The notes under the pieces are model-generated. The model made no database searches. It had not been told where the DNA came from and was given only the letters and a program-made list of their open reading frames with translations. Of a stretch of DNA of 64,000 nucleotides, positions 45,165 to 62,070 are shown piece by piece (position 1 is the stretch's first letter; each line of letters begins with the position of its first letter). Both the position numbers and the translations under genes were made by a program. Source of the DNA: Mesobacillus subterraneus (GTDB lineage Bacteria; Bacillota; Bacilli; Bacillales; Cytobacillaceae); the NCBI RefSeq assembly GCF_000934845.1, contig NZ_JXIQ01000023.1, forward strand, positions 1 through 64,000. The letters are read 5' to 3'.

Positions 45165-46688
45165 ATGGCTGAGAACACAGGGAACATCGGATTTGAAGAG
45201 ACACTTTGGAAAGCGGCAGACAAACTTAGAGGGAGTATGGATGCCAGTGAGTATAAACATGTGGTACTGGGATTGATCTTCCTTAAGTACATATCCGATA
45301 AATTTGAAACAAAGTTTAACGCTCTAGTGGAAGAAGGAGCAGGCTTTGAAGAGGACCGAGATGAATATGAAGCAGAGAATATTTTTTGGGTTCCCAAAGA
45401 AGCTAGATGGTCATTTATCAAAGACAATGCAAAAGACTCTAAAATTGGCCAGTACATTGATGATGCCATGATTCTTATTGAAAAAGAGAATACATCGTTA
45501 AAGGGTGTACTAGATAAGCGCTACGCAAGGCCAGAAATAGATAAACGGAGGCTTGGAGAACTGATTGATCTTATCTCAACCATCAAGCTTCACCAAAATG
45601 GAGAAAAGGACTTACTTGGTAGAGTTTATGAGTACTTCCTTGGCCAGTTTGCAAGTGTTGAAGGAAAAGGTGGTGGAGAATTCTATACCCCTACCAGTGT
45701 TGTTAAGACTTTGGTTGACATGATCGAACCATACCAAGGTAGAGTCTACGACCCCTGCTGTGGATCGGGCGGTATGTTTGTGCAGAGTGAAAAGTTTGTG
45801 GAAGATCATCAAGGGAAAGTTGAAAATCTCTCCATCTATGGTCAGGAGATGAACTCAACAACGTGGAAACTTTGTAAAATGAACCTCGCTATCAGAGGTC
45901 TTGATGCCAATTTAGGACCACACCATGATGATACGTTCCATCACGACCTTCATAAGACTTTAAAGGCAGACTATATCCTTGCTAATCCCCCATTTAACAT
46001 TAGTGACTGGGGAGGAAATCAACTTACAGATGATGTGAGATGGAAGTTTGGTATTCCACCTGCAGGGAATGCGAACTACGCATGGCTTCAGCATATGGTT
46101 TATCACTTGGCCCCTAATGGAAGCGCGGGTATTGTTCTCGCTAACGGATCATTAAGCACAAATACATCGAACGAAGGTGAGATTAGAAAGAATTTGTTAG
46201 AAGGGGATATAATCGATGCAATTGTTGCGCTTCCTGATAGATTATTTTATTCAACAAGCATTCCTGTCTCGCTTTGGATTTTAAATAGAAACAAGAAGGA
46301 TAATCCGAGGTTTAGGCCAAGAGATCACGAAGTTCTCTTTATTGATGCTCGACAACTAGGTGTAATGATTGACAGAAGACATAGAGAACTATCGGAAGAA
46401 GATATCACTAAGATATCCGAAACCTATCATGAATGGCGAAATATAGATGGAGACTATGAAGATATTAAGGGGTATTGTAAGTCAGCAAAGATTGAAGATA
46501 TCAGAGAGCATGAATATGTCCTAACGCCTGGAAGGTATGTAGGCATTGAAGATGTCGAAGATGATGGTGTACCATTCGATGAGAAGATGGAGAATATGAC
46601 AGCAGAGCTGGCCGAACTATTTGCAAAATCCCGACACTTAGAGGAGGAGATAAGAAAGAATCTTGGGGGTATCGGGTATGAGTTCTAG
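45165..46688 (+). CDS. hsdM: Type I restriction-modification system, methyltransferase subunit HsdM
   Basis: HsdM (507 aa) is the N6-adenine methyltransferase subunit of the type I complex. The N-terminal domain starts [53 protein letters not shown], motif [12 protein letters not shown] and the catalytic [11 protein letters not shown] are all intact. Length is normal. Its last 11 bp are overlapped by the PIN-domain gene, which is unusual because hsdS normally follows. Confidence 0.97.
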
Positions 46689-47760
46689 TAACCCCAATAA
46701 TTATGTCATAATATTTGATACTAATATTCTATATGAAAAAGCGGAAAATGGATGTGACTTTTGTGAATTTAAGTTTAATAGACTTTTTCAAAATATCGTA
46801 GATGAGATTGAAGAACGTGATCTTGTTGAACATATTACTATTGCGGTACCTGATGTGGCTTGGAACGAGTTATATCAACAAAGGATACAATCATATAACC
46901 GAAAGAATCAAGAGTTGGAAAAGTTATTAGAAGCTTTTAAGTTTCCAAATTTTCAGTATGAAATGTCATTACTCGATTATGAAATCTACTTAAATGAGCA
47001 AGTTGACTTATTTAAAAAAAAGCTTGATAACTATTCAATGAATGTAATCAGTATAGATTTACCTAGTGAAACAAGATTTAAATCAATTGTAAAACGTGCT
47101 TTTTCTAAACTTCCCCCATTTGAAGGAATTGACAAAAAAAGTGATAAAGGATTTAAGGATGCTTTAATATGGGAGAGTGTATTAGAATTTAAGACGAAGT
47201 GTTCTGAATCTAAAGTAATATTATATTCTCGAGATGGATTATTCAACGATGTGCTTGCGGAAGAATACAATGATCTCTTTAAAGATTATTTGATATTGTT
47301 AAATAAAGAAGTTGATGTAATAAAACAAATTGCGGAGATTCAAAAGACTGTAAATCAGCTTCGCAAAATAGATATAGATGAAGTTAAGTATTACGAGGAG
47401 ATAAGACTTCTGACAAGCTTCGAACTAATAAAAGATGTGATTTTTGAAACTGAATTATATAAAAAAATCGGTTCACAAATTTATGATGTTAGTGATGTTA
47501 GGGATAGTGAAATCAAGAATGTTATAGAAACTACAGATATTAATTCTAAAGAGTATATTAATTTTGAAATAAATATTCAACTCAGTTTGACATTCTCAAA
47601 TTCTGAAAAAGAAGAAGATATTGATTTAGAAAATGAAGAAATCGTGTTTTATGTTGAGTATAGCTTTTATGAGAAGTGTTTTTATATCACAAAAGTTTAT
47701 GCATTAGAAAACTTTTATGATCTTAATAAAAGGCAGTTAGGCGGTGGAAAATTTGTTTAG
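46678..47760 (+). CDS. PIN-domain protein between hsdM and hsdS (putative RNase)
   Basis: This 360-aa protein has a PIN-type nuclease fold in its N-terminal 200 residues. The acidic set is visible as Asp14 in IIFDTNILY, Glu64 in [10 protein letters not shown], Asp161 in [13 protein letters not shown] and Asp186/Asp191 in [10 protein letters not shown]. This resembles the DUF4935 group of PIN proteins (recognition, not searched). The C-terminal half is helical and acidic, with no family I know. ATG 46678 follows GGGGGTATCGGGT. It overlaps hsdM by 11 bp and hsdS by 17 bp, so it is made together with the R-M subunits. It could be a toxin RNase guarded by the complex, like PrrC (inference). Confidence 0.8.
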
Positions 47761-49042
47761 AAGAATGAAACTTTCAGAGATAGGTCAAATAGTTGCTGGT
47801 GGAACACCAAAAACAAAGATTGAAGAATATTGGAACGGAGATGTCTCTTGGATAACCCCCAAAGACTTATCTTCTCATGCAGGCATGTATATTTCAAAAG
47901 GAGAACGAAATATTAGCCAGAAGGGACTAGACAACTCCAGTGCAAAACTTCTTCCCAAAGGGACCGTTTTGTTTACTTCAAGAGCGCCTATTGGTTATGT
48001 TGCTATAGCAAGGAATGAAGTGACTACTAATCAAGGGTTTAAGAGTATTATTGTGGACGATGAAAACGATAATATATTTGTATATTACTTGTTAAAAAAC
48101 AATATAAGTCTAATAGAAAATCATGCAAATGGATCAACATTTAAAGAAATATCTGGCGCAGTTATGAAGAATTTAGAGTTTGACATTCCATCGCTAATGG
48201 AACAAAAATCCATAGCCCACATCCTTTCAACTTTAGATGACAAAATTGAAGTCAACAATAAGATTAACAAAACACTTGAAAATATGGCACATGAAATCTT
48301 CAAGCAATGGTTTGTGGATTTCGAATTTCCCAATGAAGATGGAGAACCTTATAACTCCAGTGGTGGAGAAATGGTTGAAAGTAAGCTTGGATTGATTCCT
48401 AAGGGATGGGAAGTAAGCACATTAAAAGACGTGATCAATATAATTGATAATAGAGGAAAAACACCTCCACAGGAGCCCAACAAAACAATCTACCCAATAA
48501 TCGATGTGAAGGCTTTGTCAGGTGATATTAGAGTAATTGATTATAATAATTGCATGAAATATGTTAGCAAAGAAACTTATGACAATTGGTTTAGGAGTGG
48601 GCATCCGAGCCAAGGAGATATTCTTTTATCAACTGTGGGTAGTTTAGCAGAATTGAAAATATTTATGGGGAATACAGGATGTATTGCTCAGAATGTCGTT
48701 GCTTTAAGAGCTATAAATATTTCCAATCTTTATTTATTTGAGTTGCTGAAAAATATTAAAAACGATTTAGTATCTTATAATATTGGATCAGTGCAGCCTA
48801 GTATTAAGGTAACACATATTGTTAAACATAAGATTCTTATTCCAAATAATATTATTGTTGAGAAATTCCATCATTTTATTGATAGAATTACAAATAAAAT
48901 ATTTGTTAAGCATAATGAAAACGTGTTATTAACTTCAATGAGGGATTCACTTATCCCTAAACTAATGTCCGGTGAAATCAGAGTTCCCTGCTTGCTTGAC
49001 GGCGCAGGTAAACCTTGTGATGAAGAAGGTGCCGCATCGTGA
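47744..49042 (+). CDS. hsdS: Type I restriction-modification system, specificity subunit HsdS
   Basis: HsdS (432 aa) recognises the DNA target with two half-subunits. TRD1 (about 8-150) begins with KLSEIGQIVAGGTPKTKIEE. The central conserved region has STLDDKIEVNNKINKTLENM then AHEIFKQWFVDFEFP. TRD2 (about 218-390) begins with GLIPKGWEVSTLKDVI. The C-terminal repeat has RDSLIPKLMSGEIRV. The start is uncertain: GTG 47744, TTG 47753 (5 bp after GGTGG) and ATG 47765 are all possible. It overlaps the PIN gene upstream and the small basic gene downstream. Confidence 0.93.
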   Translation: MENLFRRMKLSEIGQIVAGGTPKTKIEEYWNGDVSWITPKDLSSHAGMYISKGERNISQKGLDNSSAKLLPKGTVLFTSRAPIGYVAIARNEVTTNQGFKSIIVDDENDNIFVYYLLKNNISLIENHANGSTFKEISGAVMKNLEFDIPSLMEQKSIAHILSTLDDKIEVNNKINKTLENMAHEIFKQWFVDFEFPNEDGEPYNSSGGEMVESKLGLIPKGWEVSTLKDVINIIDNRGKTPPQEPNKTIYPIIDVKALSGDIRVIDYNNCMKYVSKETYDNWFRSGHPSQGDILLSTVGSLAELKIFMGNTGCIAQNVVALRAINISNLYLFELLKNIKNDLVSYNIGSVQPSIKVTHIVKHKILIPNNIIVEKFHHFIDRITNKIFVKHNENVLLTSMRDSLIPKLMSGEIRVPCLLDGAGKPCDEEGAAS

Positions 49043-49242
49043 AGTTTGGGTTCCGAAAACCAAGTTTAAAAAGAAGAATCTCTGCAAGAACCAGCATCAA
49101 AAGACAGCTGGTGCATCGAGCAGGGATAAAGATGCCGCGGGGATATGGATTTCTGAGGAATCCCAAGAAAGCAGTTTACAACAAGGTATATAATCGGACA
49201 TCATTTGATATATTTAAGGTCCTTAAAAGGCTATTCAAATAA
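49039..49242 (+). CDS. Small basic protein between hsdS and hsdR (67 aa)
   Basis: This 67-aa, strongly basic protein (KFGFRKPSLKRRISARTSIK near the start, AVYNKVYNRTSFDIFKVLKR near the end) starts with GTG 49039 in a GTGA overlap with the hsdS stop, with GAAGGTG 8 bp upstream. The overlap and composition support a real gene. I have the impression of similar small proteins near other Firmicute type I loci but no family name. Nucleic-acid binding is a guess from charge. Confidence 0.6.
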   Translation: MKFGFRKPSLKRRISARTSIKRQLVHRAGIKMPRGYGFLRNPKKAVYNKVYNRTSFDIFKVLKRLFK

Positions 49243-49289
49243 TCACTCATTCAAGGCGGATTCGTTGAATGGAGAAGTGGAGGTGTGGG

Positions 49290-49382
49290 GTGATCAATAA
49301 ATTAATAGAATTAAATCAAAAGACGGTATTGGAAAGGCTAATCAAATTTAAAGATTGTCTGGGAGGTGGTAGTGATGAGTAG
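49290..49382 (+). CDS. Possible 30-aa leader ORF overlapping hsdR
   Basis: GTG 49290, with GGAGGTG 5-6 bp upstream, opens a frame reading [20 protein letters not shown] then [10 protein letters not shown]. Its end overlaps the hsdR start by 8 bp and covers the hsdR ribosome binding site, so its translation could control hsdR. It may also be the remains of a longer gene. Not recognised. Confidence 0.35.
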
Positions 49383-52300
49383 TAAAAATAGTATTTTTAC
49401 AGAAGCGATGCTTGAAGAAGCAGCTATTGAAATATTAGAAAGTCTTGGCTACGATTATGCCTTTGGCCCGGACATCTCTTTAGGTGGAGATTATGAAGAG
49501 CGAAAAGATTATCGTGAGGTGATCCTTCCACATCGAGTAAAGGAAGCGCTCTTTAAGATCAATCGAGATCTACCAAGGGAGGCACTTGATGATGCCTATC
49601 GTCAACTGATCACATTCAATAGCCCAATGCTGGAAGAAAACAATCGATATTTTCATCAGTTAATGACAGAGGGGATAGAAGTATCCTTTAATGAAGGTGG
49701 ACAAATTCGCACCAAAAGAGCCTTCATCATAGACTTTGAAAATATGAATAATAATGAGTTCGTGGTCGTCAATCAATTTACAATTATTGAAAATGAAGAG
49801 AGAAGACCGGACCTTATTGTCTTTGTGAATGGTCTGCCTCTTGTGGTTATTGAATTAAAGTCTGCCAGTGATGAAAATGTAGGGATTGATGGGGCCTATA
49901 ATCAAATACAGACCTATAAACTAGACATTCCATCCCTTTTCAACTATAACGCTTTTTGCATCATCTCAGATGGAATCAATGCAAAAGCTGGCACCATTAC
50001 CTCTAATGAAGAGTGGTTTATGAACTGGAGAACCGTTGATGGAGAGGATATCGCACCTTTGTCCCAGCCTCAGTATGAAGTACTGCTAAATGGCATGTTC
50101 CATAAGGACAGATTACTTGATATTATTAAAAACTTTCTTCTTTTCCAGGAGTCAAAAGAATCTGAGAAGGATATCGATGGGAAGAAGATAGGGGATAAAA
50201 AATCCATCATCAAAATTCTGGCAGCATATCACCAGTACTTTGCTGTTAAGAAAGCCATTGAAAAAACAAAAGAAGCAACAAAGGAAGACGGCGATCGAAA
50301 GATTGGTGTTATTTGGCATACACAAGGTTCTGGAAAGAGTTTTTCTATGGTGTTTTATACCGGAGGACTTGTGAGAGAACTTAACAATCCTACCATCGTG
50401 GTCATAACCGATAGAAATGACCTGGATGATCAGCTCTTTACAACCTTCACCAAATCGAAAGATATCCTACGTCAGACACCAAAACAAGCAACCGTAAGGA
50501 AACTTTCAGATAACCAAAGAACGAATTATGCCAATGGAAATAGCACTGAGGTTAATGGACTTTATGACCTTTTAAATGATAGAGAGTCTGGTGGGATTAT
50601 CTTCACCACCATTCAAAAGTTCAAACCAGAAGAAGGCGAGATGCCAGTACTCACTGATCGTAAGAATGTCATCATCATTGCAGATGAAGCCCACAGAAGC
50701 CAATATGGCCTAGAGGCCAAAGTGGACTCTAAGACCGGAGAAGTGAATTATGGTTATGCGAAATACCTAAGAGATGCACTACCCAACGCCTCTTTTATCG
50801 GCTTTACAGGAACACCGATTGATCTAGAAGATCGATCAACTGTAGCCATATTTGGTCATACCATTGATACATATGACATGACCCAGGCGGTTGAAGATGA
50901 AGCAACGGTTCGAATTTATTATGAAAACCGCATCATTAAACTGGAAACCGATGAAGAAGAACTGACCAAAATCGATGATGAATTTGAAGAAATCACAGAA
51001 GGTCAGGAAGAATTTGAGAAGGATAAGAACAGGGCCAAATGGTCCAGAATGGAATCCATTGTGGGATCTCCAAACAGAATCAAAAAGCTTGCTGAAGATG
51101 TAGTAAATCACTACGAAGAAAAGGCTAAGAGCATCGATGGCAAAGCTATGGTGGTCTGCATGAGTCGCAGAATCTGCGTTGAGCTCTATGATGCCGTAAC
51201 AGCGCTGAGACCCGATTGGCATAACGATGATATTGATAAAGGGAAGATAAAAGTTGTTATGACCGGCAGCGCTGCAGATAATGAAAAGCTACAGAAGCAT
51301 CTAGGTGGCAAACAGCGTAGGGATTTGCTGGCCAAACGAATGAAAGACAACAGTGATGAGTTGAAAATCGTTATTGTAAGGGACATGTGGCTCACGGGAT
51401 TTGACGTTCCTTCCATGCATACCATGTACATTGATAAACCCATGAAAGGGCATAACCTGATGCAAGCCATTGCAAGGGTTAATCGCGTCTTTAAAGAAAA
51501 ATCTGGCGGTGTAGTTGTTGACTATATTGGGATTCTAGAAAGTTTAAAGAGCGCCTTAAAACAATACACCAATACGGATCGTCTAAATACCGGTATTGAT
51601 ACGGATGTTGCTGTTGCTGTAATGCTTGAAAAACTGGAAGTCTTAAGAGACATGATGCATGGCTATGATTACTCAAAATATATGGGCAACTCTAAAGTGG
51701 AAAGAATGAGGACCATTGTAGGCGGTATGGACTTCATTCTCGGAAAGAAAGAAGAAGAACAAAAGGAATTTAAAAAGACAGCTCTTGAACTAGGCAAGGC
51801 TCATGCCCTATGTGCTGCGACTGAAAAGGGGAAAGAGAAGGCTCTTGAAGTCAGCTATTTTAAAGCAGTTAAAGCAAGTCTAGTTAAACTGAAGGAAAAA
51901 GACAAAGCGCCATTATCCAAAAGAGAAATTGAAGCAAGACTTCATCAAATGCTGGAGCGCTCCATTATCTCAGAAGATGTTATCGATGTATTTGATGCCA
52001 TGGGAATCAAGAGGCCTGAGATCTCAATCCTTTCTGAAGACTTCTTAAAAGAAGTTCAGCAAATGAAGCAGAAGAACCTAGCACTGGAAATGCTTAAAAA
52101 ATTATTAGAAGGCAACATCAAAACCATGGAAAAGAGAAACCTTGTGAAGTCTGAGAAGTTCTCGGAAAGGCTCACAAAGGCTCTAAACAAGTATCGAAAT
52201 CAAGCACTTACAAATGCTGAAGTAATTGAGGAACTTATTCGAATGGCCCACGATATTAAAAAGATGCGAGAGGAAGAAACAGAACTGGGACTAAGTGACG

Positions 52301-52629
52301 ATGAAATTGCTTTTTATGATGCACTGACAGCGGATGATATAGTAAAAGAACTTATGGAAGATGAAACGCTTAAGAAAATCGCTCATGAATTGACTTTAGC
52401 CATAAGAAACAACATTACCATTGATTGGAGTGTTCGTAAAAGTGCTAGGGCAAGCATGAGACGTGTGATTAAAAGGCTTCTTAGCAAGTATGACTATCCA
52501 CCAGATCAAGCATTAAAAGCGATGAATATCGTTATGCGGCAAGCGGAGAAAATGGCCGGAAATGTTTATGAAGAAGTTATCTGGTCAGACAGAGTTGCAG
52601 AAGAACCTGGAAAATTCACAACGGATTGA
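49375..52629 (+). CDS. hsdR: Type I restriction-modification system, restriction/translocase subunit HsdR
   Basis: HsdR (1084 aa) translocates and cuts unmodified DNA. The N-terminal PD-(D/E)xK nuclease has [20 protein letters not shown] (Asp, then Glu-x-Lys). Motor domains carry Walker [19 protein letters not shown]-type [10 protein letters not shown], motif [10 protein letters not shown], and motif [13 protein letters not shown] long helical C-terminal region binds HsdM/S. ATG 49375 follows GGGAGGTGG by 5 bp. An upstream in-frame start at 49366 is rejected. There is no sign of inactivation. Confidence 0.97.
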
Positions 52630-52647
52630 TGAAAGGATTGAAGAATA

Positions 52648-52869
52648 ATGGCAGAAATAAAATATGAAATCAAAGAAACCGTGGGCGCTCTCTCAGAAAA
52701 CAATAAAGGCTGGTCAAAGGAATTGAATTTGATTAGCTGGAATGACAGGGAGCCTAAATACGACATCAGGGATTGGTCGCCGGAACATGAGAAAATGGGC
52801 AAAGGTGTAACCTTAAGCGTAGAAGAACTTAAAAAGCTGAGGGATTTACTGAATGAGATGAAACTTTAG
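52648..52869 (+). CDS. PC4/YdbC-like nucleic-acid-binding protein
   Basis: This 73-aa protein matches the YdbC family (PC4-like fold, known from a Lactococcus structure): KYEIKETVGALSENNKGWSK, ELNLISWNDREPKYDIRDW, SPEHEKMGKGVTLS. PC4-like proteins bind single-stranded and melted DNA. It lies 18 bp after hsdR on the same strand with GAAAGGA upstream and is probably co-transcribed with the R-M genes. A role in restriction or repair is inferred only from position. Confidence 0.88.
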   Translation: MAEIKYEIKETVGALSENNKGWSKELNLISWNDREPKYDIRDWSPEHEKMGKGVTLSVEELKKLRDLLNEMKL

Positions 52870-52881
52870 GGAGGTTGAGAG

Positions 52882-53064
52882 ATGAGCAAATTACAAAAAC
52901 CGGGTGAAAAACCTGATCGATCTGGTGAGTATATTGAGAGAGGACCACGAGGTGGAGAAGTAAGTAAACCTAGACAAGTAACAATTGAACCAGGAGATGA
53001 TAAACTTCCGCCTACAGCTGAAAAAAATAGAAAGTGGGAGAGAATTGGTCCTGAGAAGAAATAG
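52882..53064 (+). CDS. YjzC-like small protein
   Basis: This 60-aa hydrophilic protein with KPGEKPDRSGEYIERGPRGG and PRQVTIEPGDDKLPPTAEKN resembles the YjzC family of small proteins (PGxKAPxxGxY...G...). The function is unknown. ATG with GGGAGG upstream, 12 bp after the YdbC-like gene, so it is probably in the same transcript. Confidence 0.7.
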   Translation: MSKLQKPGEKPDRSGEYIERGPRGGEVSKPRQVTIEPGDDKLPPTAEKNRKWERIGPEKK

Positions 53065-53083
53065 GCATTGATACAGTATTGAT

Positions 53084-53806
53084 ATGATCTGTGATGAAGA
53101 AGAGTCAATGCTTATTGTCGGTAGACAAGTCAGAAATGAAAAGAATGGAAGAAGTGATTTGACTGCAGTAGATAACAATGGAAATATTGTACTCATTGAA
53201 ATCAAGAGGGACCGTAAGGATATTGAACACCGCAAAGAAGCGTTTGAATTCCAGGCAATAAGATATGCTGCCAGTTATGCAACAATAGATAAGACCGATG
53301 ATTTAGTGAAAAAAGTTTATGCTCCCTACATTGAAAATTATAGAAGTGAGTTTGAACTTGGAGAGTTAACCTCATTTGAACTTGGTATTCGCAAGTTGAA
53401 CGAGTTCCTTCAGGTCAATGATGCACAAAAGAACTTCAATGAAAAGCAAAGGATCATCTTGGTGGCGTCTGATTTTGATGAGCAGACATTGCCGGCAGCT
53501 GCGTGGCTAAATAGTAATAATGTTGACATGAGTTGCTATAGATTAACTCCATACAAGCTAAATGAAGATTTGTTTTTCTATGTGGAAAAGCTACTCCCTG
53601 TGACCAACTATGATGATTATTATGTGAATTTGATGGATAAATCAATCGTGACAACAGTAATAGGAGATAAGAAAATCACACGGAGATCTTTGCCTAAAAT
53701 TGACATAATGCTCGAATGGGGTGTTGTTAAAGAAGGCGACATCATTGTTGCTAAAGGTAGCGGTGTGGAAGATTTTAAAAGCTTTTTGATGACATCCAAT
53801 TGTTGA
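53084..53806 (+). pseudogene. Truncated NucS/DUF91-like nuclease
   Basis: The 240-aa frame carries a PD-(D/E)xK core: GRSDLTAVDNNGNIVLIEIK (Asp, then Glu-x-Lys), preceded by MLIVGRQVRN. In the families I know, about 50 residues come before this GRQV motif. Here they are missing and there is no ribosome binding site before the ATG. The C-terminus, WGVVKEGDIIVAKGSG then VEDFKSFLMTSNC, also seems cut short, where a further 60-residue DUF4357-like domain would be expected. It is probably a decayed gene trimmed at both ends. Confidence 0.55.
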
Positions 53807-53848
53807 TTATGAAAGAAAATAGTAATGGGGTTTTATAAATTTACCAAA

Positions 53849-55633
53849 CTATTTAATAGGTTTTATTTTGTCTATCTCTAAAAATTCAATTAGTTTTTGT
53901 GGGATTAACTCTTCACCAAAAGTTTCAATTTTATTTATGGTATCCCAGATCCCAAAACTATCTTTATCATTTTTATTGTAACCAATTACATTCTCTAATT
54001 TTGGTATATTAAAATGTATTTGGTCAGGTTTAGATTCCTGTATTAATCTCCAATTAGTTGTTATCATTGCTCTTTTTGTTGTAACACTTAATTCTTCGCT
54101 TTTAAGGTTAAATGCTTGGATTTTTTGGATTTCATTTTTATAAAAATTACTACTCTTATATTCATTTTCAGTTTTAAAGTCTAGTTTACAGATGAAATCG
54201 TCATTAAAATCAAAATCGTTAATCACAAAAAAGTTTAGACCTAAGTGCTTGCAAAGCTTGATGAGTACCAGTGCTGTTATTTTACCGTGATGTGGAATTA
54301 TGGCTATATTATTAAAATTTAGATAAGCATCTGAAAACTTTGCATCATTTGTTATTTTCAATACTTTCTTTCTTATAACTTCTTTATATACCAACATATC
54401 ATTTGGACCTTCAACAAGGAGTACTTTTCTACTAAATATTATTTTATTTAGATTAGGTTCGATAATCTTAATGTAATTGTTATAGTCTCTAACCTGTTCT
54501 ACTAATTCATCGTCCTCAATCTGTGAAATTGTAACTTCAGATGAAAAATCCGCCTTAGCCTTATTATATTTTATTTCAGTTTGCTTACTATTTTCATCGA
54601 ACTCTAATCTTATCAAACCTTTTGTATCGAAAATATCAATCATCTTATGTGAATGTGTAGTATAAATGACTTGATGATTATTTTCTGCTAATCCACATAA
54701 AACAATTTTATAAAAATACTCTTGGTGATTTTCATGTAAAAAACTTTCAGGTTCTTCAAATAAAAATAGGCATCTATCATCAGAATTAGTTTCTGCTATG
54801 GCTTGTATTACAGCCATTACAAACATTGAAATATAACCATCACCAAAATGTTCAATTGGAATCAAATTTCCAGAATCACCGTTCAATCCGATTTTGAACA
54901 TCATTTCTAAAAAAATTTCTTCATAGTCTGGCAAACCAAACTCAATATTACAATTGTTATTTCTAAGATTTTTTGAATAATTTATTTGAATTTGTTTAAT
55001 AAACGTATTTAGTTTGGAATCTATAAGGACATTTTTAGTAGAATCTTTTATTTGATCTTTAAAAGTATTTTTTTTCTTTAGCATATCTTTATCTGAATCT
55101 ACAATACTTTTAATATGTTTTGCGAGAAATGATGTGAGATTCCCCCAACTGGTTTTTTTAGTAGATATCTCTTTTTTTATCTCATGGAAATTTACATAGA
55201 AAATCTTATAGTATTTTGAAGCTCCAAATGCATTCCAATTTTTATCCTGTTGCTCCCAATCTTTGTAAGATTCGATTTTTGCATTTTCTATCTCAGTTCC
55301 ATCTAAATCTATGTTGAGAAAATGATATCCTGTTAAATCAGCATATTTACCATCAGGTTTTAATTCTGTACTACTTTCTATACCTGTAATAATACCTGGT
55401 ACATTATTAAAATCTCTATTATGGAAGTCATCTCGAGTAAAGGTATTCCTGTTAACATATCTTTCCGTAATTCCATATAGGATAGCATTTAGTAAATTGG
55501 TTTTACCAGCATTATTGTATCCTACAATTGCAATTGGTTTCTTATAGTCTTCTTTAGGAAATACAATATCTCTTTTTTCTCCAAATGAACGATAATTTTT
55601 AATTGATATTCCGTTTATTCTAATGCTACTCAT
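53849..55633 (-). CDS. OLD-family ATP-dependent nuclease (AAA + TOPRIM)
   Basis: This 594-aa protein joins an ABC-type ATPase and a TOPRIM nuclease domain. It has Walker A GYNNAGKTNLL (38-48), a long helical insertion (about 120-240), a signature-like HFGDGYISMFV, Walker B CLFLFEEPESFLHE and the H-loop VIYTTHSHK. TOPRIM follows with VLLVEGPNDMLVY (Glu) and VINDFDFNDD (DxD). Such proteins cut DNA and act in phage defence. No UvrD-like partner (as in Gabija) or reverse transcriptase lies beside it, so it is a stand-alone class 1 type. It is on the opposite strand from the R-M operon. The ATG has GGAGGTTC upstream. Confidence 0.9.
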   Translation of the reverse strand: MSSIRINGISIKNYRSFGEKRDIVFPKEDYKKPIAIVGYNNAGKTNLLNAILYGITERYVNRNTFTRDDFHNRDFNNVPGIITGIESSTELKPDGKYADLTGYHFLNIDLDGTEIENAKIESYKDWEQQDKNWNAFGASKYYKIFYVNFHEIKKEISTKKTSWGNLTSFLAKHIKSIVDSDKDMLKKKNTFKDQIKDSTKNVLIDSKLNTFIKQIQINYSKNLRNNNCNIEFGLPDYEEIFLEMMFKIGLNGDSGNLIPIEHFGDGYISMFVMAVIQAIAETNSDDRCLFLFEEPESFLHENHQEYFYKIVLCGLAENNHQVIYTTHSHKMIDIFDTKGLIRLEFDENSKQTEIKYNKAKADFSSEVTISQIEDDELVEQVRDYNNYIKIIEPNLNKIIFSRKVLLVEGPNDMLVYKEVIRKKVLKITNDAKFSDAYLNFNNIAIIPHHGKITALVLIKLCKHLGLNFFVINDFDFNDDFICKLDFKTENEYKSSNFYKNEIQKIQAFNLKSEELSVTTKRAMITTNWRLIQESKPDQIHFNIPKLENVIGYNKNDKDSFGIWDTINKIETFGEELIPQKLIEFLEIDKIKPIK

Positions 55634-55870
55634 ACAAGAACCTCCATAATAGAATTCATTGTAAATAATTGTCTTATTATAACATATTAAACTGACATCA
55701 ATAATCGTGACTTAGGCTTATTAACTATCCTAAATTGTTATACAAATATTCAAACAAAATGTATTTGCTTCAGGTTGACTCCTCGCATGATTGTAATTTA
55801 TTGTGTTGTTTGCTATTACCCTATCATTTTTTCTCTTATAATAGATAGTGAAAAAAGGAGTGTGAAATAA

Positions 55871-55993
55871 ATGGGTGTGCCAATCGGAATTTTTAAAAAT
55901 GGTGAGTTTTTAAAAGAATGCTCCAACATACAAGAAGCCGGGAGCGTCACTTCGTTCATCTTGTCGATGATGAAGCACAGATTGATTTTCTAA
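55871..55993 (+). CDS. Short ORF (40 aa), probably a gene remnant
   Basis: A well-placed AAAAGGAGTG precedes ATG 55871, which reads MGVPIGIFKNGEFLKECSNI then QEAGSV and soon loses protein-like character before a stop. A second frame (55918-56106, 62 codons) continues to the DUF262 start and overlaps it by 8 bp. One possibility is an older gene of which the two frames are halves after a frameshift. The start resembles NUMOD-like modules (weak). Function unknown. Confidence 0.35.
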   Translation: MGVPIGIFKNGEFLKECSNIQEAGSVTSFILSMMKHRLIF

Positions 55994-56098
55994 ATGTCAT
56001 AGAAAATATTCCACAGGCATATGTGTTGGCTGATGTTTGGAAAATAAGAAAAACTTGGATAACTATGAGAAAACGCCGGAGCTATATGGAGACAAACG

Positions 56099-57405
56099 AT
56101 GAGTAAAATTACTTTTTCAGTGAAATCAATAAAAGATGTTCTACAGAATGAAAGTCTTAAAATCCCAGAATATCAGCGACCATACAAATGGGAACGCAGG
56201 CATATTCGCAACCTTTTTTATGATATACGAGAAGCCATTGACAGAAACATGAGTGAGTATCGAATCGGCTCTATCATTTTGCATAATAAAGACGATGAAA
56301 ACATAGACATCGTGGACGGGCAGCAACGTTTGATTTCAATTTCATTATTCATGTATTGTGTTGCAAAAGACAATCTGCCTGATGGTGCTAGTAACTTATT
56401 AAACGGCAGTTATGTAGGCATCTCACAGCTTCACGCTAAAGAGAACTATGATGAATGGCGTTTTCTTTGTGGTTTAATTTCGAAGGAAGAGGTCGACGTC
56501 ATAAGCAACTTTATGATGAACCATTGCAAAGTTTCTGTTATAGAGATGCCATCAGAATGCTTATCAGAAGCTTTTCAGCTTTTTGATTCGCAAAATAACC
56601 GTGGCAAGGCCTTAGAACCTCACGATTTATTGAAAGCCTATCATTTAAGAGCAATTGAAAATCCGTCCGAACTCACGGTAGAAAACTGGGAAAAATTTGT
56701 TAATGACAGAGAACTTAATCTCCGCGATTTGTTTGACAAGCACCTATTTAGAATAAGACGCTGGATTAACGGCGATACAGGATTGTATCAAAAAAAGTAT
56801 GGCAGTGAGCTAAAATTCACTGAGCGTTTTATCGAAGATTTCAAGGGTGTTAATCTTCAAAATGCGTCATACCCCTATTTGCAGTTATACGAGGAATTAC
56901 TTAAACACGACATTTCTTTCCCAAATTCTATTTGTATGCCAATAATTAATGGAACGCCTTCTTCAATTTTATTGAATTCTCGTATGTGCTTTTCAAAAAC
57001 AATTTTTATAAGAACAGTATAGTAGACGGCTTCCTTTCAGATGAACTCAAAGATATAGTGAACAGTAAGAAAAGCAAATATTCAAGAAACATCAATCTGT
57101 ATACTAACCTACTAGCAACATTTATTGATCGTTTTGGAGTGGAAAAACTCGACAGAGAAACGTGTGAAAAGGTGTTTGTTTGGGCGTTTTATCCAAGAAC
57201 TGCCGCAAAAGCAATATACGATACAACACTCGCAAATTATGCAGCAAGCGGGACATTCCAGAAGAAAAAATGGCAGAAGCTATTTCAAGAATTAGCGGTT
57301 TCGGCTACTCCACGTGAATTTGTTGCTCGAATTGATACAGATATGCTTGGCAATCTAACCGCTGAAGACATCATAAATAAGCTTAATGAGGGGGTCAAAA
57401 GGTGA
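56099..57405 (+). pseudogene. DUF262 protein (GmrS-like), frameshifted
   Basis: The first frame (56099-57022) encodes a DUF262 domain: LKIPEYQRPYKWERRHIRNL and the nucleotide-pocket motif IVDGQQRLISISLF, with FDSQNNRGKALEPHDLLKAY. It then runs into PSSILLNSRMCFSKTIFIRT and a stop. From about 56955 the +1 frame reads NAFFNFIEFSYVLFKNNFYK and continues to 57405 as a normal helical domain. A single missing base near GGAACGCC (56951-56958) explains this. The restored protein would have about 435 residues. Its stop overlaps the next DUF262 gene by 4 bp. DUF262 proteins are the nucleotide-dependent subunit of type IV GmrSD-like enzymes. Confidence 0.8.
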
Positions 57406-59348
57406 ACAATCCTCTGTCTATATTTGATTTGCTGAACGATAATAGCTATTCAATTCCGCTGTACCAACGAAATTTTGCGTGGACTGACGTGGAAATAACA
57501 CAACTAATAATAGATGTGCTCGATTCTATCAAAGAAAATCGTCCCGAGTATTTCATAGGGACTCTCGTCGTAAGCAAAAATGGAAATGAATATTCTATCA
57601 TAGATGGGCAACAGCGATTTACCTCAATACTACTTATTGCTCTTGCCATTCAAAATGAATATTCTCCTTCCACTAAGCGCGTTGAAAAAATCAACTTGTG
57701 CTTTTCAGCACGAAAACGGTCGAATGATACGTTAAGTAGTTTATTTTTAAACGATATCAATACTGGAAAAATTACTAACGACGAGTTGCGTCGTGGTTAT
57801 GGTGAAACAGTGAGCGCTATTAAAGAGCATATTGGGTCTAGCGATTATCTAGACATTTCAATTGAAGACTTCTATGGATACCTTTTTGATAAGGTAAAAA
57901 TTTTCATTAGCGAAATGCCTGAAGACTTAGATGTTAATCTGTATTTCGAGCGATTCAACTCGCGCGGTGAACAATTAGAATATCATGAAATTATAAAAGC
58001 TGAGCTTATGCAGCGCCTTGTAGCAAATGGTATCGCTTTTGCCAAAGTTCAAAAGTTTGCTAAAGTTTGGGATGCTTGTTCCGAATTCGAAACCCCTTGT
58101 ATTAAGTTTTTTAAGAAAAAGACAAAGGGATCAGATGCTGATGAAGAACGAGAAAAAGTATTTAAGTGCGAGTGGAGCGAATATGAGCCAGGGAGAAATT
58201 CTTGGAGGTATGGATATAGTCTTAAAAACATCTATTCGAAAATGGTCGTTAACAAGGAAAGTAAAAAATCACTAATTAGCGCCATTGAAGAAACGGTTGA
58301 AAGTGGTGCCGATGCAGGTATTGAAGCTGTAGAGAACGAAGATTCCAATAAATATCGTTGTATTGTGAATTTTAATACATTCCTTTATTATGTTTTGTAT
58401 TTGACTGATAACGTAGGTGCAGATTCAATCCAGCTGGATGATAAAAAGCTGAAATCAGCTTTTAAAGTATCTTCAAGAGATAGCCAATGGATATTAAGTT
58501 TCGGGGAAAACTTGCTAAAAGCGAAATTCATCTTTGACAATTTGATCATCCGGAGCTCTCTTGAAACGACCAACAGGCGCAAAGAGGGGGAATGGTTTCT
58601 ACAAAAGGCCTATCGCGAAGACAAGAATGAAAAAGCGAGAGGGCATTTATATGTTCAAACACGGTTTGATAAAAACTCTTTTCCGACCAATAATCACGAA
58701 ATACTTATGTTGCAGTCGATGTTTGCTGTCACCTTTACTGCCTACAAAGATACTAAATGGTTATATTCAACGCTCAAATACTTGTTTGAAAATGCAGACA
58801 AGTTAAATGAGGCTAACTTCGGTGATAAATTCTACGCTTTTCTGGAGTCTATGTCTAAGAGATTTGCGATAGAAAGAATATGCAATAGCAGCGGACTTGA
58901 TGCTGAGAGATTGAGGTACAACAATTTTGTGCCTGTGTACGCTTTTAACTTAACCGATTATGTGTTATGGAAAAACAGAGAAAAGTTGGGATTAGGCTAT
59001 ACTGCAATCAAGTTTGATGATTTCCGCTTTACATACAGACGTTCAATTGAGCATTGGTATCCGCAAAACCCAAACGAGACCGAAGGAAAATCAAAATTAC
59101 CTGATGATTTGCTACATTGTTTTGGAAATCTATGTTTAATAGTGGCTAGTCAGAATTCTGCATTCGGCAATTTATATCCACTTGCAAAACTAGCAAACTG
59201 GCGAAGTATTTTTAGTACACAAAGCCTTAAATTACAAATGATGGCAGCAAACACTGATTCTTGGAGTTGTTGGGACGAAACGAAGCGCACGGAAATTTTA
59301 GAAATGGAAAAAGATATATTGCAATTGCTTAAAGAATACATCTATTGA
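57402..59348 (+). CDS. DUF262-DUF1524 protein (GmrSD-like type IV restriction enzyme)
   Basis: This 648-aa protein has an N-terminal DUF262 domain (SIPLYQRNFAWTDVEITQLI, IIDGQQRFTSILL, RFNSRGEQLEYHEIIKAE) and a C-terminal HNH/His-Me-finger domain of DUF1524 type with SIEHWYPQNP (His551), then HCFGNLCLI and SQNSAFGN. GmrSD-type enzymes cut DNA with modified cytosines. The substrate here is unknown. GTG 57402 is set by the GTGA overlap with the upstream gene and by GAGGGGG 7 bp before it. It is intact, unlike its partner. Confidence 0.88.
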   Translation: MNNPLSIFDLLNDNSYSIPLYQRNFAWTDVEITQLIIDVLDSIKENRPEYFIGTLVVSKNGNEYSIIDGQQRFTSILLIALAIQNEYSPSTKRVEKINLCFSARKRSNDTLSSLFLNDINTGKITNDELRRGYGETVSAIKEHIGSSDYLDISIEDFYGYLFDKVKIFISEMPEDLDVNLYFERFNSRGEQLEYHEIIKAELMQRLVANGIAFAKVQKFAKVWDACSEFETPCIKFFKKKTKGSDADEEREKVFKCEWSEYEPGRNSWRYGYSLKNIYSKMVVNKESKKSLISAIEETVESGADAGIEAVENEDSNKYRCIVNFNTFLYYVLYLTDNVGADSIQLDDKKLKSAFKVSSRDSQWILSFGENLLKAKFIFDNLIIRSSLETTNRRKEGEWFLQKAYREDKNEKARGHLYVQTRFDKNSFPTNNHEILMLQSMFAVTFTAYKDTKWLYSTLKYLFENADKLNEANFGDKFYAFLESMSKRFAIERICNSSGLDAERLRYNNFVPVYAFNLTDYVLWKNREKLGLGYTAIKFDDFRFTYRRSIEHWYPQNPNETEGKSKLPDDLLHCFGNLCLIVASQNSAFGNLYPLAKLANWRSIFSTQSLKLQMMAANTDSWSCWDETKRTEILEMEKDILQLLKEYIY

Positions 59349-59548
59349 GCTATAGCCTTTGCTCGCTAACGAAAACCCTACTCGTGTCCATGTGATATAT
59401 TGAAAGTATTTAGGATGAAATAGGTAGTAAACCATTGCAATTGATTTTCTTTGTAAGAAGGGAAAATGGTGCGAATGTTCTTGTGATTTGACTTTTTCTG
59501 TTTTCAGAGCATTACTACTTGATAACGAAATTCAAGGAGTGATGCTTT

Positions 59549-60046
59549 TTGAAATTAACAGATGAAGTTAAGAATGAAATTAGAACCTTGCGTATGAAAG
59601 GCTTAAGTTATCGGCAAGTTGCTGCTGAAACCAGTTTGAGTAGAGATTGTGTCAGGAATTATTGCAAATTGATTGGTTTAGATGGTTTGGGCAGTGAATT
59701 GCCAGCGGTGTTAAGATGTAAATTTTGTGGCAAGCCTATAGATAAAAAAGCAACAGGAAGGAAGCCGGTTTATTGCTCTGTTGACTGTAAAAGGAAATGG
59801 TATCAAGCCAACCCAAAAATGCATGGACATACATGCTATTACTGCGGTAAAGAATTTAATAGTGTGGCTTCTATAGCCAAGTTCTGTAGTCACAAGTGCT
59901 ATGAAAGAAACAGATTTTATCAAATGGAAGATATACAAATGATTATCGAATATCTTGAAAAGAAAGAGCCTGTGCCAAACGCTCCTGGCTGGATAAAAGA
60001 GCTGATTAATGGAATATCAATAACAGATGATAAGGATGATGTTTAG
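59549..60046 (+). CDS. Helix-turn-helix and double zinc-finger protein
   Basis: This 165-aa protein starts with a sigma-region-4-like helix-turn-helix (KNEIRTLRMKGLSYRQVAAE, TSLSRDCVRNYCK) and has two treble-clef-like zinc fingers (CKFCGKPI...YCSVDCKRKW and CYYCGKEF...FCSHKCYERN). I know this architecture from small proteins carried next to serine recombinase genes in Firmicute elements. No recombinase is visible here. The start is TTG 59549, with AAGGAG 9 bp upstream. The 200 bp before it hold no gene. Confidence 0.75.
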   Translation: MKLTDEVKNEIRTLRMKGLSYRQVAAETSLSRDCVRNYCKLIGLDGLGSELPAVLRCKFCGKPIDKKATGRKPVYCSVDCKRKWYQANPKMHGHTCYYCGKEFNSVASIAKFCSHKCYERNRFYQMEDIQMIIEYLEKKEPVPNAPGWIKELINGISITDDKDDV

Positions 60047-60305
60047 CACTAAGGTAAACCGACTAAAGGGTGATTTCCGTTTAGGAGGGGTGTTTTGCCA
60101 AAAAGTGAGGTAAATTACAACATATAGTGGTTGAAAGCCAAATTCTTTTGCGTAATTGTATAAGAAATAAGTTATCACACATGTTGAGACAGTTGCACTG
60201 TTGGAGCGAAAATAGACCATGGAATCAGGGTTTTGTAGAGATTTTTACAACGACTATTTCCTATCTTATTAGTCTAGGAAAACAGAAAACGGATAAAAAT
60301 GTGCA

Positions 60306-60375
60306 GGAAAAGGGTGTGCAGTTTTGCAGATTCATTTAACTGATTGGCTAAAGGGAGTACAGTTTAGCAAAAGAA
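60306..60375. repeat. Two imperfect copies of an AAAGGGnGTnCAGTTT motif
   Basis: AAAGGGTGTGCAGTTTTGCA (about 60308) and AAAGGGAGTACAGTTTAGCA (about 60351) are direct repeats 43 bp apart, in the 530-bp gap after the zinc-finger gene. Similar motifs could be recombination sites of a lost element (inference). The rest of 60047-60576 shows no gene. Confidence 0.4.
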
Positions 60376-60576
60376 GAAGTTCATAGAATAAAAATGAACA
60401 ATTTTTCTTACTCCTGAGTTGCGCCCTTTTCTTGAATAAATAAGAAGTTAGTCATTGTCATACAGAAGTAAATTTAGCCAATTTCAAGATCGATTAAAGT
60501 AACTTAAATTTCGCTTTTAGATTAATGATATGCAATTAGTTATAGCTTATAATAAAGGAAATGGGAGGGATGAAAT

Positions 60577-60822
60577 ATGAAGTGGCAGGAAGTTAGAGAA
60601 TTATTTCCTAATCAGTTTGTTTTAGTATCAATTCTTGATTATCATGAGGAAGATGAAAAAAAAATTATTGATGAAGTCGCACCCATTCGTTCCATTCCAG
60701 ATGAAAATGCTAATAAAGAGTTTTTTAAAGTAGAACCAGGAAACATTGTTTACCATACATCAAATGAGAACTGTATCGTTCATATACGTAAAGATCCGTT
60801 GATGAGAGTGAGACGAATTTAA
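60577..60822 (+). CDS. Conserved hypothetical partner of retropepsin-like protein
   Basis: This 81-aa protein, KWQEVRELFPNQFVLVSILD then YHEEDEKKIIDEVAPIRSI, resembles a small protein I have seen directly before retropepsin-like genes in Firmicutes. The function is unknown. ATG with GGGAGGG upstream. Its stop overlaps the next start by one base (TAATG), so the pair is co-translated. Confidence 0.75.
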   Translation: MKWQEVRELFPNQFVLVSILDYHEEDEKKIIDEVAPIRSIPDENANKEFFKVEPGNIVYHTSNENCIVHIRKDPLMRVRRI

Positions 60823-61328
60823 TGAAAATATCGTTTGATGGACAGCTTATTACAACATCACTTATTATTACTTTTCGAGGAAAAACGCTACAAATCGATG
60901 ATATAATTATTGATACAGGCTCCTCTCACACGGTTATTAGCCCAGATGTTTTAGAAGAAATAGGGGTAATATATGAAAATGGCGACGACATTTATGAAGC
61001 ATATGGGATAGGCGGATCAGTTCCTTTCTATACTAAAGTAATGGATGAGATTCAAATTGATAAATTTAATATAAAGAATATTGAAATTGATGTGGGAATT
61101 CTTCCAAAAGATCATAATGGACTTCTAGGGTTGGATATTTTAATGACCTACAATTTTATAGTGGATATGGACAAGTTAGAGTTATATACATCAAGGATGA
61201 AAGCCGAGGATTCGGTAAAAAATGAAGTGTTTCTTATGCAGACTTTAAAAAGGTGTCTGTCGTGCCCAGGATTTGTCGAAATGCGACATTATTCGGGGTG
61301 TGACAGGCACCTTTCTAATGGGTTCTAG
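60822..61328 (+). CDS. Retropepsin-like aspartic protease domain protein
   Basis: This 168-aa protein carries an aspartic-protease-like fold: the active-site IIDTGSSHTVIS, AYGIGGSVPFYTK (flap region), and HNGLLGLDILMTYNFIVDMD, the second conserved block. The natural domain ends near LELYTS (residue about 127). The last 25 or so residues (RCLSCPGFVEMRHYSGCDRH) are encoded by a REP-like palindrome, so the original C-terminus was probably lost. Such single-domain proteins may act as dimers. The substrate is unknown. Confidence 0.75.
   Translation: MKISFDGQLITTSLIITFRGKTLQIDDIIIDTGSSHTVISPDVLEEIGVIYENGDDIYEAYGIGGSVPFYTKVMDEIQIDKFNIKNIEIDVGILPKDHNGLLGLDILMTYNFIVDMDKLELYTSRMKAEDSVKNEVFLMQTLKRCLSCPGFVEMRHYSGCDRHLSNGF
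61249..61315. repeat. REP-like palindrome (GGTGCCTGTC type)
   Basis: AAAGGTGTCTGTCGTGCCC (61250-61268) is nearly complementary to GGGGTGTGACAGGCACC and TTT (61296-61315). An inner hairpin TGTCG-AAATG-CGACA (61274-61288) sits at its centre. I recognise this as a frequent extragenic palindrome in Bacillaceae genomes. Here it lies inside the 3' end of the protease frame. Confidence 0.75.
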
Positions 61329-61385
61329 AAATATTCTGTATAATTATAAAGTAGATTATGGGTAAGAATTTAATGAGAAAATAAA

Positions 61386-61429
61386 TAGAAACCCTTTCAG
61401 GATAGTGTTGAAATGTTTCTGTATATTCG
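61386..61429. repeat. Left copy of a 44-bp direct repeat flanking the toxin-antitoxin pair
   Basis: TAGAAACCCTTTCAGGATAG then TGTTGAAATGTTTCTGTATATTCG is repeated at 62379-62423. The first 22 bases are identical and the rest similar. Confidence 0.8.
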
Positions 61430-61431
61430 TT

Positions 61432-61766
61432 TTAATCCGTATCCATCTCCGAGAGTTGGTGAACCTGATCACGTTTTCCGTAAACAACAGCAGTTACCTG
61501 AACCTTTACATAATCCTCGTCTATCCAGAAGTAGACTAGAAAATTTTTAACAGGCATTTTACGAATTCCGTAGCTGTGCCACGGTTCTTCTTCAGTAAGG
61601 GCAATTCGCTGTGGAAATTCGGAGAGAGAGGAAATTGCATCCTCTAATGCCTCCAATAGATTTAGTGCTGCATCCGGAGCTTTCAGTTCAGAAGCAATGT
61701 AGAGTGTAATTTCATGCATCTGTTCTTCTCAAGAGTGGTAATTTTTACAGCGTAGGTTTCAGCCAT
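61432..61766 (-). pseudogene. RelE/ParE-family toxin with an N-terminal frameshift
   Basis: From ATG 61766 the frame reads MAETYAVKITTL then goes out of phase. The conserved rest, QMHEITLYIASELKAPDAAL, LLEALEDAISSLSEFPQRIA, YGIRKMPVKNFLVYFWID, lies in another frame. Adding one base between 61729 and 61730 (CTTG[C]AGAAGAACAG) restores a standard ParE-like toxin of about 111 aa. As written, only a shortened form could start at ATG 61719 (95 aa), without the first beta strand. It may be inactive. The toxin ribosome binding site lies within the antitoxin end. Confidence 0.75.
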
Positions 61767-61770
61767 CGTT

Positions 61771-62070
61771 TTATAACTCCCGTTTTAAGTCGGCAAATAC
61801 ATCGGCTGCAGGACGAGATCGGTTCGCTTTTGCATCTTTAAACCCAGCTTGCATCATGGCATCGAATTGTGCTGCATCCATTTCATCGAGAGCAATCGGT
61901 GCAGGGGGAACGGATAGAGAGAATGGAATGCTCTTTGTCATAATGATTTGTTTGTATAGCATATTGATGACAACTGAAGCTGGCACTCCCAATTGAGCCA
62001 TGATAGCTTCCGCTTTTTCTTTTACTTCCGGTTCAACACGAGCAAGGATATTTGCAGTTTTAGCTGCCAT
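61771..62070 (-). CDS. RelB/DinJ-family antitoxin
   Basis: This 99-aa antitoxin has an N-terminal ribbon-helix-helix (ANILARVEPEVKEKAEAIMA, QLGVPASVVINMLYKQIIMT) for DNA binding and a C-terminal toxin-binding tail (DAMMQAGFKDAKANRSRPAA). It precedes the toxin by 4 bp. It is intact and would autoregulate the pair. Confidence 0.88.
   Translation of the reverse strand: MAAKTANILARVEPEVKEKAEAIMAQLGVPASVVINMLYKQIIMTKSIPFSLSVPPAPIALDEMDAAQFDAMMQAGFKDAKANRSRPAADVFADLKREL

What the first reader, a model, noticed from the sequence alone, without database searches (positions are those of the whole stretch)
56099..59348. Tandem DUF262 genes: GmrSD-like, but with two DUF262 copies
Both proteins carry the DGQQR motif, and only the second has the HNH (His551, IEHWYPQ). 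Classical GmrSD is one DUF262 plus one DUF1524, fused or split. A two-protein version with an extra DUF262 subunit coupled by a 4-bp overlap may be a separate type, in which the first protein is a regulator or specificity unit.
Basis: partly seen in the sequence, partly recalled or inferred. Interest (0 to 1): 0.55.

Follow-up and report, generated by a model that had tools for sequence, protein, structure and literature searches.

The report
TgvAB-type two-protein restriction system, broken copy

Summary
Gene A (56099-57405) has an N-terminal DUF262 and a C-terminal DUF7834, split by one frameshift near 56950. Gene B (57402-59348, intact) has DUF262 plus a DUF1524 HNH nuclease with H551. They overlap by 4 bp.

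The pair is a tight, widespread unit. B or its pieces follow A in 78 of 78 testable loci among 80 kept from a search with A. A lies upstream in 12 of 12 genomes of the window's phylum with a full-length B. A and B trees agree, r=0.95 over 94 pairs.

This architecture is in print: TgvAB (2024), GmrS1/GmrSD2 of E. coli ECOR17 (2025) and the reversed GrwAB (2025). In each, both genes are required. So 'a separate two-protein type' is right but not new.

Added here: DUF7834 in 60 of 60 aligned A proteins, invariant DUF262 motifs in A, and a predicted A fold laid along DndI/SspE up to, but without, the nuclease. A may be a nuclease-less GmrSD protomer. Because of the frameshift this copy is probably inactive, unless the assembly is wrong.

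The parts
56099..57022 (+). Gene A (tgvA-like), first piece: DUF262/GmrSD_N domain plus first part of DUF7834; runs into a stop after the frameshift
   Evidence: ORF 307 aa; PF03235 E=1.1e-30 at residues 11-182, PF25202 positions 5-101; GmrSD_N placed at 56129-56644
56950..56950 (+). Approximate site of the one-base frameshift in gene A
   Evidence: single gap column in the DNA alignment with intact relative L277; the two DUF7834 halves meet at 56956 in different frames
56986..57405 (+). Gene A, second piece in another frame: rest of DUF7834
   Evidence: ORF 139 aa; PF25202 positions 132-224, E=1.1e-13; 120 of 134 aligned residues identical to L277, dN/dS 0.14
57388..57394 (+). Likely ribosome-binding site of gene B (GAGGGGG)
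   Evidence: read by eye in the sequence; not tested
57402..57405 (+). 4-bp overlap GTGA between the end of gene A (shifted frame) and the start of gene B
   Evidence: sequence
57402..59348 (+). Gene B (tgvB-like), 648 aa: DUF262/GmrSD_N, helical middle, DUF1524/GmrSD_C HNH nuclease
   Evidence: PF03235 residues 8-203 and PF07510 residues 517-633
59049..59054 (+). Codons of E550-H551, the HNH catalytic motif of gene B
   Evidence: H551, N576, N585 invariant in the 55 aligned B proteins
45165..52629 (+). Neighbouring type I restriction-modification genes: hsdM 45165-46688, hsdS 47744-49042, hsdR 49366-52629; hsdR ends 3470 bp before gene A
   Evidence: hsdR; hsdM = N6_Mtase + HsdM_N, hsdS = Methylase_S; distance

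Best explanation
[quoted passage not shown] In an intact pair, A (DUF262-DUF7834) and B (DUF262-helical middle-HNH) most likely form a complex in which both DUF262 domains bind and hydrolyse NTP and help sense altered bases in incoming DNA, and only B carries the nuclease that cuts it. My preferred molecular picture is a mixed version of the BrxU/DndI dimer, with A as a protomer that lacks the nuclease. Shown here: domains, conserved motifs, A-B pairing, joint inheritance, predicted folds. Shown by others for relatives: need for both proteins and for both DGQQR motifs, and activity against phages with sugar-modified hydroxymethylcytosine. Inferred: that this pair acts in the same way, the heterodimer, the base that it would sense, and that the frameshift abolishes function in this genome.
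For: Domain anatomy of both genes. 60 of 60 aligned A relatives carry GmrSD_N and DUF7834; 55 of 55 aligned B proteins (window included) carry GmrSD_N and GmrSD_C. QR, DGQQR and FxxxN are invariant in both alignments; H551/N576/N585 in B. B or its pieces directly follow A in 78 of 78 testable of the 80 loci kept from a search with A. From B, A is upstream in 12 of 12 genomes of the window's phylum with a full-length B, the window's own (A in two pieces) and one with A cut by the contig start (G452) included. Tree agreement of A and B r=0.951, 0 of 2000 permutations reach it, 94 pairs. Window 52001-62000 against the 12-kb G579 locus gives one match, 56086-59351, that is, the pair alone. Both A pieces and B show dN/dS well under 1 against G579: 0.20, 0.14, 0.14. 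hsdMSR genes lie close. Published function.
Against: The V. cholerae TgvA/TgvB sequences themselves were not compared, so membership rests on architecture, motifs and gene order. No activity was tested. No phage with modified DNA is tied to this host. The whole-length fold match of A is to families whose DUF262 alone already matches; Foldseek TM-scores of A are low (0.28-0.42 by query length) and its BrxU match is not significant (E=0.17). The C-terminal half of A shows no significant sequence-profile similarity to the middle of B or of other GmrSD proteins, and the TgvAB authors saw TgvA's likeness end at DUF262. Two genomes hold a B remnant without recognisable A.
Confidence: 0.87

Rival explanations
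1. B is an ordinary single-chain GmrSD enzyme that works alone, and A is an unrelated neighbouring defence gene (tandem by the chance of a defence island).
For: B alone has the full DUF262-DUF1524 architecture of single-chain GmrSD. DUF262 genes are enriched near GmrSD genes in general (PMC4619093 passages). Two genomes hold a decayed B end without recognisable A.
Against: A and B are adjacent in 78 of 78 and 12 of 12 testable cases from the two directions (27, 28, 30, 35, 52, 56), their trees agree, and published relatives need both genes.
Confidence: 0.04
2. A is a specificity, chaperone or anti-inhibitor subunit rather than a half of a mixed dimer; for example it protects B from injected phage inhibitors of the Ip type.
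For: The TgvAB authors offer overcoming an inhibitor, or a regulatory or structural role, as possibilities. T4 Ip3 blocks GmrS1/GmrSD2 of ECOR17.
Against: The DUF262 motifs of A are invariant, and mutating DGQQR in TgvA abolishes protection, which asks for NTPase work, not mere shielding. The predicted fold of an A relative is laid along the non-nuclease body of DndI/SspE.
Confidence: 0.3
3. Gene A is intact in the cell: either the frameshift is an assembly error, or it is bypassed by programmed frameshifting.
For: Only one gap column in 1308 against an intact relative 88% identical in DNA, and no decay of the second piece (dN/dS 0.14). The genome is a draft of 208 contigs.
Against: No read data here. 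The intact A genes counted read in one frame (though they were picked as single ORFs), and I saw no classical slippery heptamer by eye. A recent true mutation fits equally well.
Confidence: 0.45
4. The pair belongs with the divergent OLD-nuclease gene at 53849-55633 in a Menshen-like system.
For: Menshen combines a DUF262 protein with a predicted OLD nuclease (PMC10952713 passages); the OLD gene starts 466 bp from A.
Against: An OLD relative was found in 1 of 103 A or pair loci (phmmer E<=1e-5, held flanks only), likeness with the G579 locus stops at the pair, and Menshen lacks DUF1524.
Confidence: 0.02

Closest known systems
TgvAB of Vibrio cholerae VPI-2 (VC1767/VC1766; PMC11411939)
   Same: A-then-B order; DUF262 with QR, DGQQR and FxxxN in both; DUF1524 with catalytic H and N only in B; close to a type I R-M system
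   Different: Window pair lies 3.5 kb beyond hsdR rather than inside the hsd operon; gene A is frameshifted; host is not a Vibrio (by its genes I read it as Bacillota; no call names it); activity untested; TgvAB sequence not compared
GmrS1/GmrSD2 of E. coli ECOR17 (PMC12373910)
   Same: Same doublet, HNH only in the second gene, both needed; its E582/H583 numbering equals that of the E. coli plasmid pair L013, which falls in the same A and B classes as the window pair
   Different: ECOR17 sequence not compared, and the numbering is not unique (L012, L061 and L108 share it); inhibited by T4 Ip3; window B is 31% identical to L013 B
GrwAB of V. cholerae WASA lineage (PMC12137116)
   Same: Two DUF262 proteins, one with DUF1524, both needed
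   Different: Nuclease gene comes first (GrwA), partner GrwB has a long multi-domain C-terminus, broader targets (7-deazaguanine as well)
Single-chain GmrSD, BrxU, SspE, DndI
   Same: B has their DUF262-helical-DUF1524 plan; predicted B fold aligns with SspE (Z 16.7), DndI (15.8) and BrxU (10.6)
   Different: They act as one kind of polypeptide; full-length B-type proteins were found here only with A

Membership tests
TgvAB-type two-protein GmrSD system | Two adjacent same-strand genes, partner first and nuclease second | tested here: met
   56099-57405 then 57402-59348
TgvAB-type two-protein GmrSD system | DUF262 with QR, DGQQR and FxxxN in both proteins | tested here: met
   both pass the Pfam cut-off
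TgvAB-type two-protein GmrSD system | DUF1524 with catalytic His and Asn in B only | tested here: met
   PF07510 in B, none in either piece of A; H551, N576, N585
TgvAB-type two-protein GmrSD system | Sequence orthology to VC1767/VC1766 | not tested
TgvAB-type two-protein GmrSD system | Both genes required for anti-phage activity | not testable with these tools
   published for TgvAB
TgvAB-type two-protein GmrSD system | Acts on sugar-modified hydroxymethylcytosine DNA | not testable with these tools
   published for TgvAB
TgvAB-type two-protein GmrSD system | Embedded inside the hsd operon (the origin of the name, not a condition: the paper finds 1341 tgvAB hits but 79 five-gene operons) | tested here: not met
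   hsdR ends 3470 bp upstream with two other genes between; paper numbers
TgvAB-type two-protein GmrSD system | Both genes intact (needed to work, not to be a relative) | tested here: not met
   gene A frameshifted near 56950
GrwAB | Nuclease gene first, partner with long C-terminus | tested here: not met
   order is reversed and A spans about 434 codons over both pieces
Classical single-chain GmrSD | Works as one DUF262-DUF1524 polypeptide without a DUF262 partner | tested here: inconclusive
   B has the domains, but every full-length B relative found in the phylum has A beside it
Menshen/Dazbog/PD-T4-2 | DUF262 component in a system without DUF1524 | tested here: not met
   B has PF07510; feature as stated in PMC10952713 passages

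The most novel reading that the evidence does not exclude
A-type proteins (DUF262-DUF7834) are whole GmrSD/DndI-like protomers without the nuclease, so that the system is an obligate mixed dimer: two working NTPase/sensor domains but a single nuclease, unlike the symmetric BrxU and DndI dimers. It may nick or cut only one strand per complex, or need two complexes to break DNA, and loss of A (as in this genome) would be a simple way to switch off a costly nuclease while B stays intact.
Probability: 0.35. Interest if true: 0.45.

Novelty: new member of a known kind. Interest (0 to 1): 0.27.

Why it matters
What stays open, and what this survey sharpens, is what A does. The constant DUF7834 tail, the invariant NTPase motifs and a nuclease-less GmrSD-like predicted fold point to a mixed dimer that can be tested on purified proteins. 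The broken copy in the window also fits reports that such nucleases can be harmful: joint induction of GmrS1/GmrSD2 was toxic in E. coli, and a DUF262/DUF1524 gene causes plasmid cost in Pseudomonas.

Tried and rejected
Rejected: chance adjacency; a Menshen-like link to the OLD gene (OLD relative in 1 of 103 loci); GrwAB (order reversed); A as a recent duplicate of B. On the last: A and B domains are each one clade in a FastTree tree (SH-like support 0.999 and 0.863; 63 A, 62 B, 73 other domains), but A and B together are not a clade apart from other DUF262 proteins. The classes were set beforehand by profile scores, with 30 proteins with hits left unclassified. Two IQ-TREE starts failed on their settings and a third was stopped by its time limit before bootstraps; its best tree so far keeps both clades.

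Led nowhere: profile comparison of A's C-terminus with the middle or end of B and with other GmrSD proteins gave no significant match, so the structural match rests on folds only. In PADLOC 2023 the window pieces and the first A relative find only partial matches to HEC-06, Orf5 and SspE models, mostly at DUF262, for B also at the HNH end. No paper held mentions DUF7834. The promoter/terminator scan is close to its shuffled expectation (17 against 13.2, 5 against 2.6). The structure comparisons list few families; what is not listed is not excluded.

Start codons, hence overlaps, come from a mechanical ORF caller. The line 'H at' printed for the relatives gives the Glu before the His.

Full report
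WHAT IS THERE. Gene A starts at 56099 and reads 307 residues to a stop at 57022; a second ORF, 56986-57405, continues it in another frame. The first piece holds the DUF262 (GmrSD_N) domain and the first part of DUF7834, the second piece the rest of DUF7834. Gene B, 57402-59348, is open over 648 codons with DUF262 at its start and DUF1524 (GmrSD_C) at its end. B begins with GTG and overlaps the end of A by four bases; a GAGGGGG stands seven bases before it. These are the only two GmrSD_N matches (E<=0.001) in the whole genome of 3.9 Mb. A type I R-M system lies upstream: hsdM, hsdS and hsdR. No call names the host; from its housekeeping genes I read it as Bacillota, so 'phylum' below means the phylum of the window's genome.

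THE LESION. It has an intact A. Over the A region 1153 of 1308 alignment columns are identical, with one gap column near 56950; B is identical at 1672 of 1943 columns. dN/dS against it is 0.20 before the shift, 0.14 after it and 0.14 in B. The part of A behind the shift was thus under selection until very recently, or the shift is an assembly error; this draft cannot tell. Window 52001-62000 against the 12-kb G579 locus matches only from 56086 to 59351: the pair looks like one cassette.

THE PAIR. In 76 a B-type ORF follows on the same strand, in two (L074, L106) B is there in pieces, and in two (L079, L085) the contig ends. In two of the 76 (L045, L099) B is short, and in L042 it runs off the contig. 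By record titles, with phyla assigned by me from the names, they come from Bacillota, Actinomycetota, Pseudomonadota, Campylobacterota, Bacteroidota, Verrucomicrobiota, Planctomycetota, Spirochaetota and others, with one archaeal MAG. By the ORF caller's starts, 75 of 89 pairs overlap, 32 by 8 bases and 7 by 4. From the other side, 9 of 398 genomes of the class hold a full-length B (480 bits or more), the window's own included; the 8 others were fetched and all have A directly upstream. In the phylum sample 2 of 398 hold it, the second being G015, also paired, though first met through A's DUF7834. Among 61 relatives, G418 is paired and G452 has the end of an A at its contig start. That makes 12 of 12. 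A viral scan with B kept 80 of 123 relatives; only three match over most of B, on the same contigs as A loci L108, L110 and L112. Against the reading: two genomes, one of them in the window's own genus (G414, G800), hold only a C-terminal remnant of B and no recognisable A. On plasmids, 1013 records match the first piece of A and 940 match B. The E. coli pair L013 sits between hsdS and hsdR, the layout reported for tgvAB, and 14 of 5426 E. coli genomes hold at least 80% of it. Type I genes occur in the held flank of 31 of 80 loci, all three in 21.

ANATOMY OF THE CLASS. All of 60 aligned A relatives match GmrSD_N and DUF7834, all of 55 aligned B proteins GmrSD_N and GmrSD_C. Residues of QR, DGQQR and FxxxN are invariant in A and in B, and H551, N576, N585 in B. 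A domains form one clade and B domains another (63 and 62 sequences, with 73 other DUF262 domains); the two are not an exclusive sister pair. A and B trees agree with r=0.951 over 94 pairs, reached by 0 of 2000 permutations; this shows joint inheritance and is no proof of contact.

FOLDS. A stand-in A (L035, 444 residues, pLDDT 90.4, pTM 0.78) and the window's B (pLDDT 83.0, pTM 0.71) were predicted. B aligns with SspE, DndI and BrxU over its whole length. A aligns with SspE (Z 15.6, 349 residues, rmsd 17.8) and DndI (Z 13.5, 347 of 444, rmsd 7.2, model 6-436 against chain 5-466 of a 588-residue chain). DUF262 cannot supply more than about 200 of these, so the C-terminal half of A is laid on the body of DndI short of its nuclease end. 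ParB proteins, which share only DUF262, reach Z 5.7. Foldseek ranks the same families first for A (SspE E=4.6e-06, DndI 1.4e-05) but with low TM-scores, and BrxU is not significant (0.17). The high rmsd, the tool's warning about helical folds and the lack of any sequence-profile match keep this at the level of a hint. It goes further than the TgvAB paper, which saw the likeness of TgvA limited to DUF262.

WHAT IS KNOWN. TgvAB (PMC11411939; abstract, passages and sections 5 and 9 seen) has this architecture; neither gene protects alone; DGQQR mutations in either protein and H571A or N602A in TgvB abolish protection; it acts on Tevenvirinae; 1341 hits were found in 41,142 genomes. A review (PMC12409362, passages) calls TgvAB and GrwAB unusual as two-protein systems. 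E. coli ECOR17 has GmrS1/GmrSD2 (PMC12373910, passages and section 9): neither alone protects, both together on induction are toxic, T4 Ip3 blocks them. The catalytic residues E582/H583 have the same numbers as in the L013 B protein, and in three other B proteins. GrwAB (PMC12137116, passages) is a second two-protein type with the reverse gene order. A 2015 survey had noted DUF262 neighbours of GmrSD genes (PMC4619093, passages). BrxU is an interlocked dimer that ATP separates (PMC8565348, passages); DndI is shown as a dimer (PMC11662687, passages).

VERDICT. A correct observation and a good guess, already published as a class; this is a further, damaged member. The open point worth an experiment is whether A is a nuclease-less protomer of a mixed dimer.

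Noticed in passing
L180, L226, L249 (viral contigs); G201, G070, G210, G030 (genomes of the window's phylum): A second kind of tandem DUF262 pair: an HNH-bearing ORF first, then a larger (731-792 aa) DUF262 ORF without the HNH pattern, as in GrwAB (by pattern, for the viral contigs; only frame lengths for the genomes).
   Followed up: partly
L284 10852-11157 (G414, same genus as the window); L285 6711-7133 (G800): Remnants of only the C-terminal nuclease end of a B-type protein, without a recognisable A: probably decayed pairs.
   Followed up: partly
window 53849-55633, - strand: OLD-family ATPase/TOPRIM gene next to the pair, divergent; a relative in 1 of 103 A or pair loci.
   Followed up: yes
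window 53084-53806, + strand: 240-aa protein with weak likeness to NucS nuclease and PADLOC PDC-S11, possibly a truncated candidate defence gene; relatives in 2 of 103 loci.
   Followed up: partly
window 46663-47760, + strand: 365-aa PIN-domain protein (PIN_12, E=3.9e-30) encoded between hsdM and hsdS, a gene embedded in the type I operon.
   Followed up: partly
window 55871-56085, + strand: Short broken reading frame just upstream of gene A, outside the stretch shared with G579; unassigned.
   Followed up: no
window 59549-60046, + strand: 165-aa protein with a helix-turn-helix-like start and cysteine pairs (by eye); no relative in 103 loci.
   Followed up: partly
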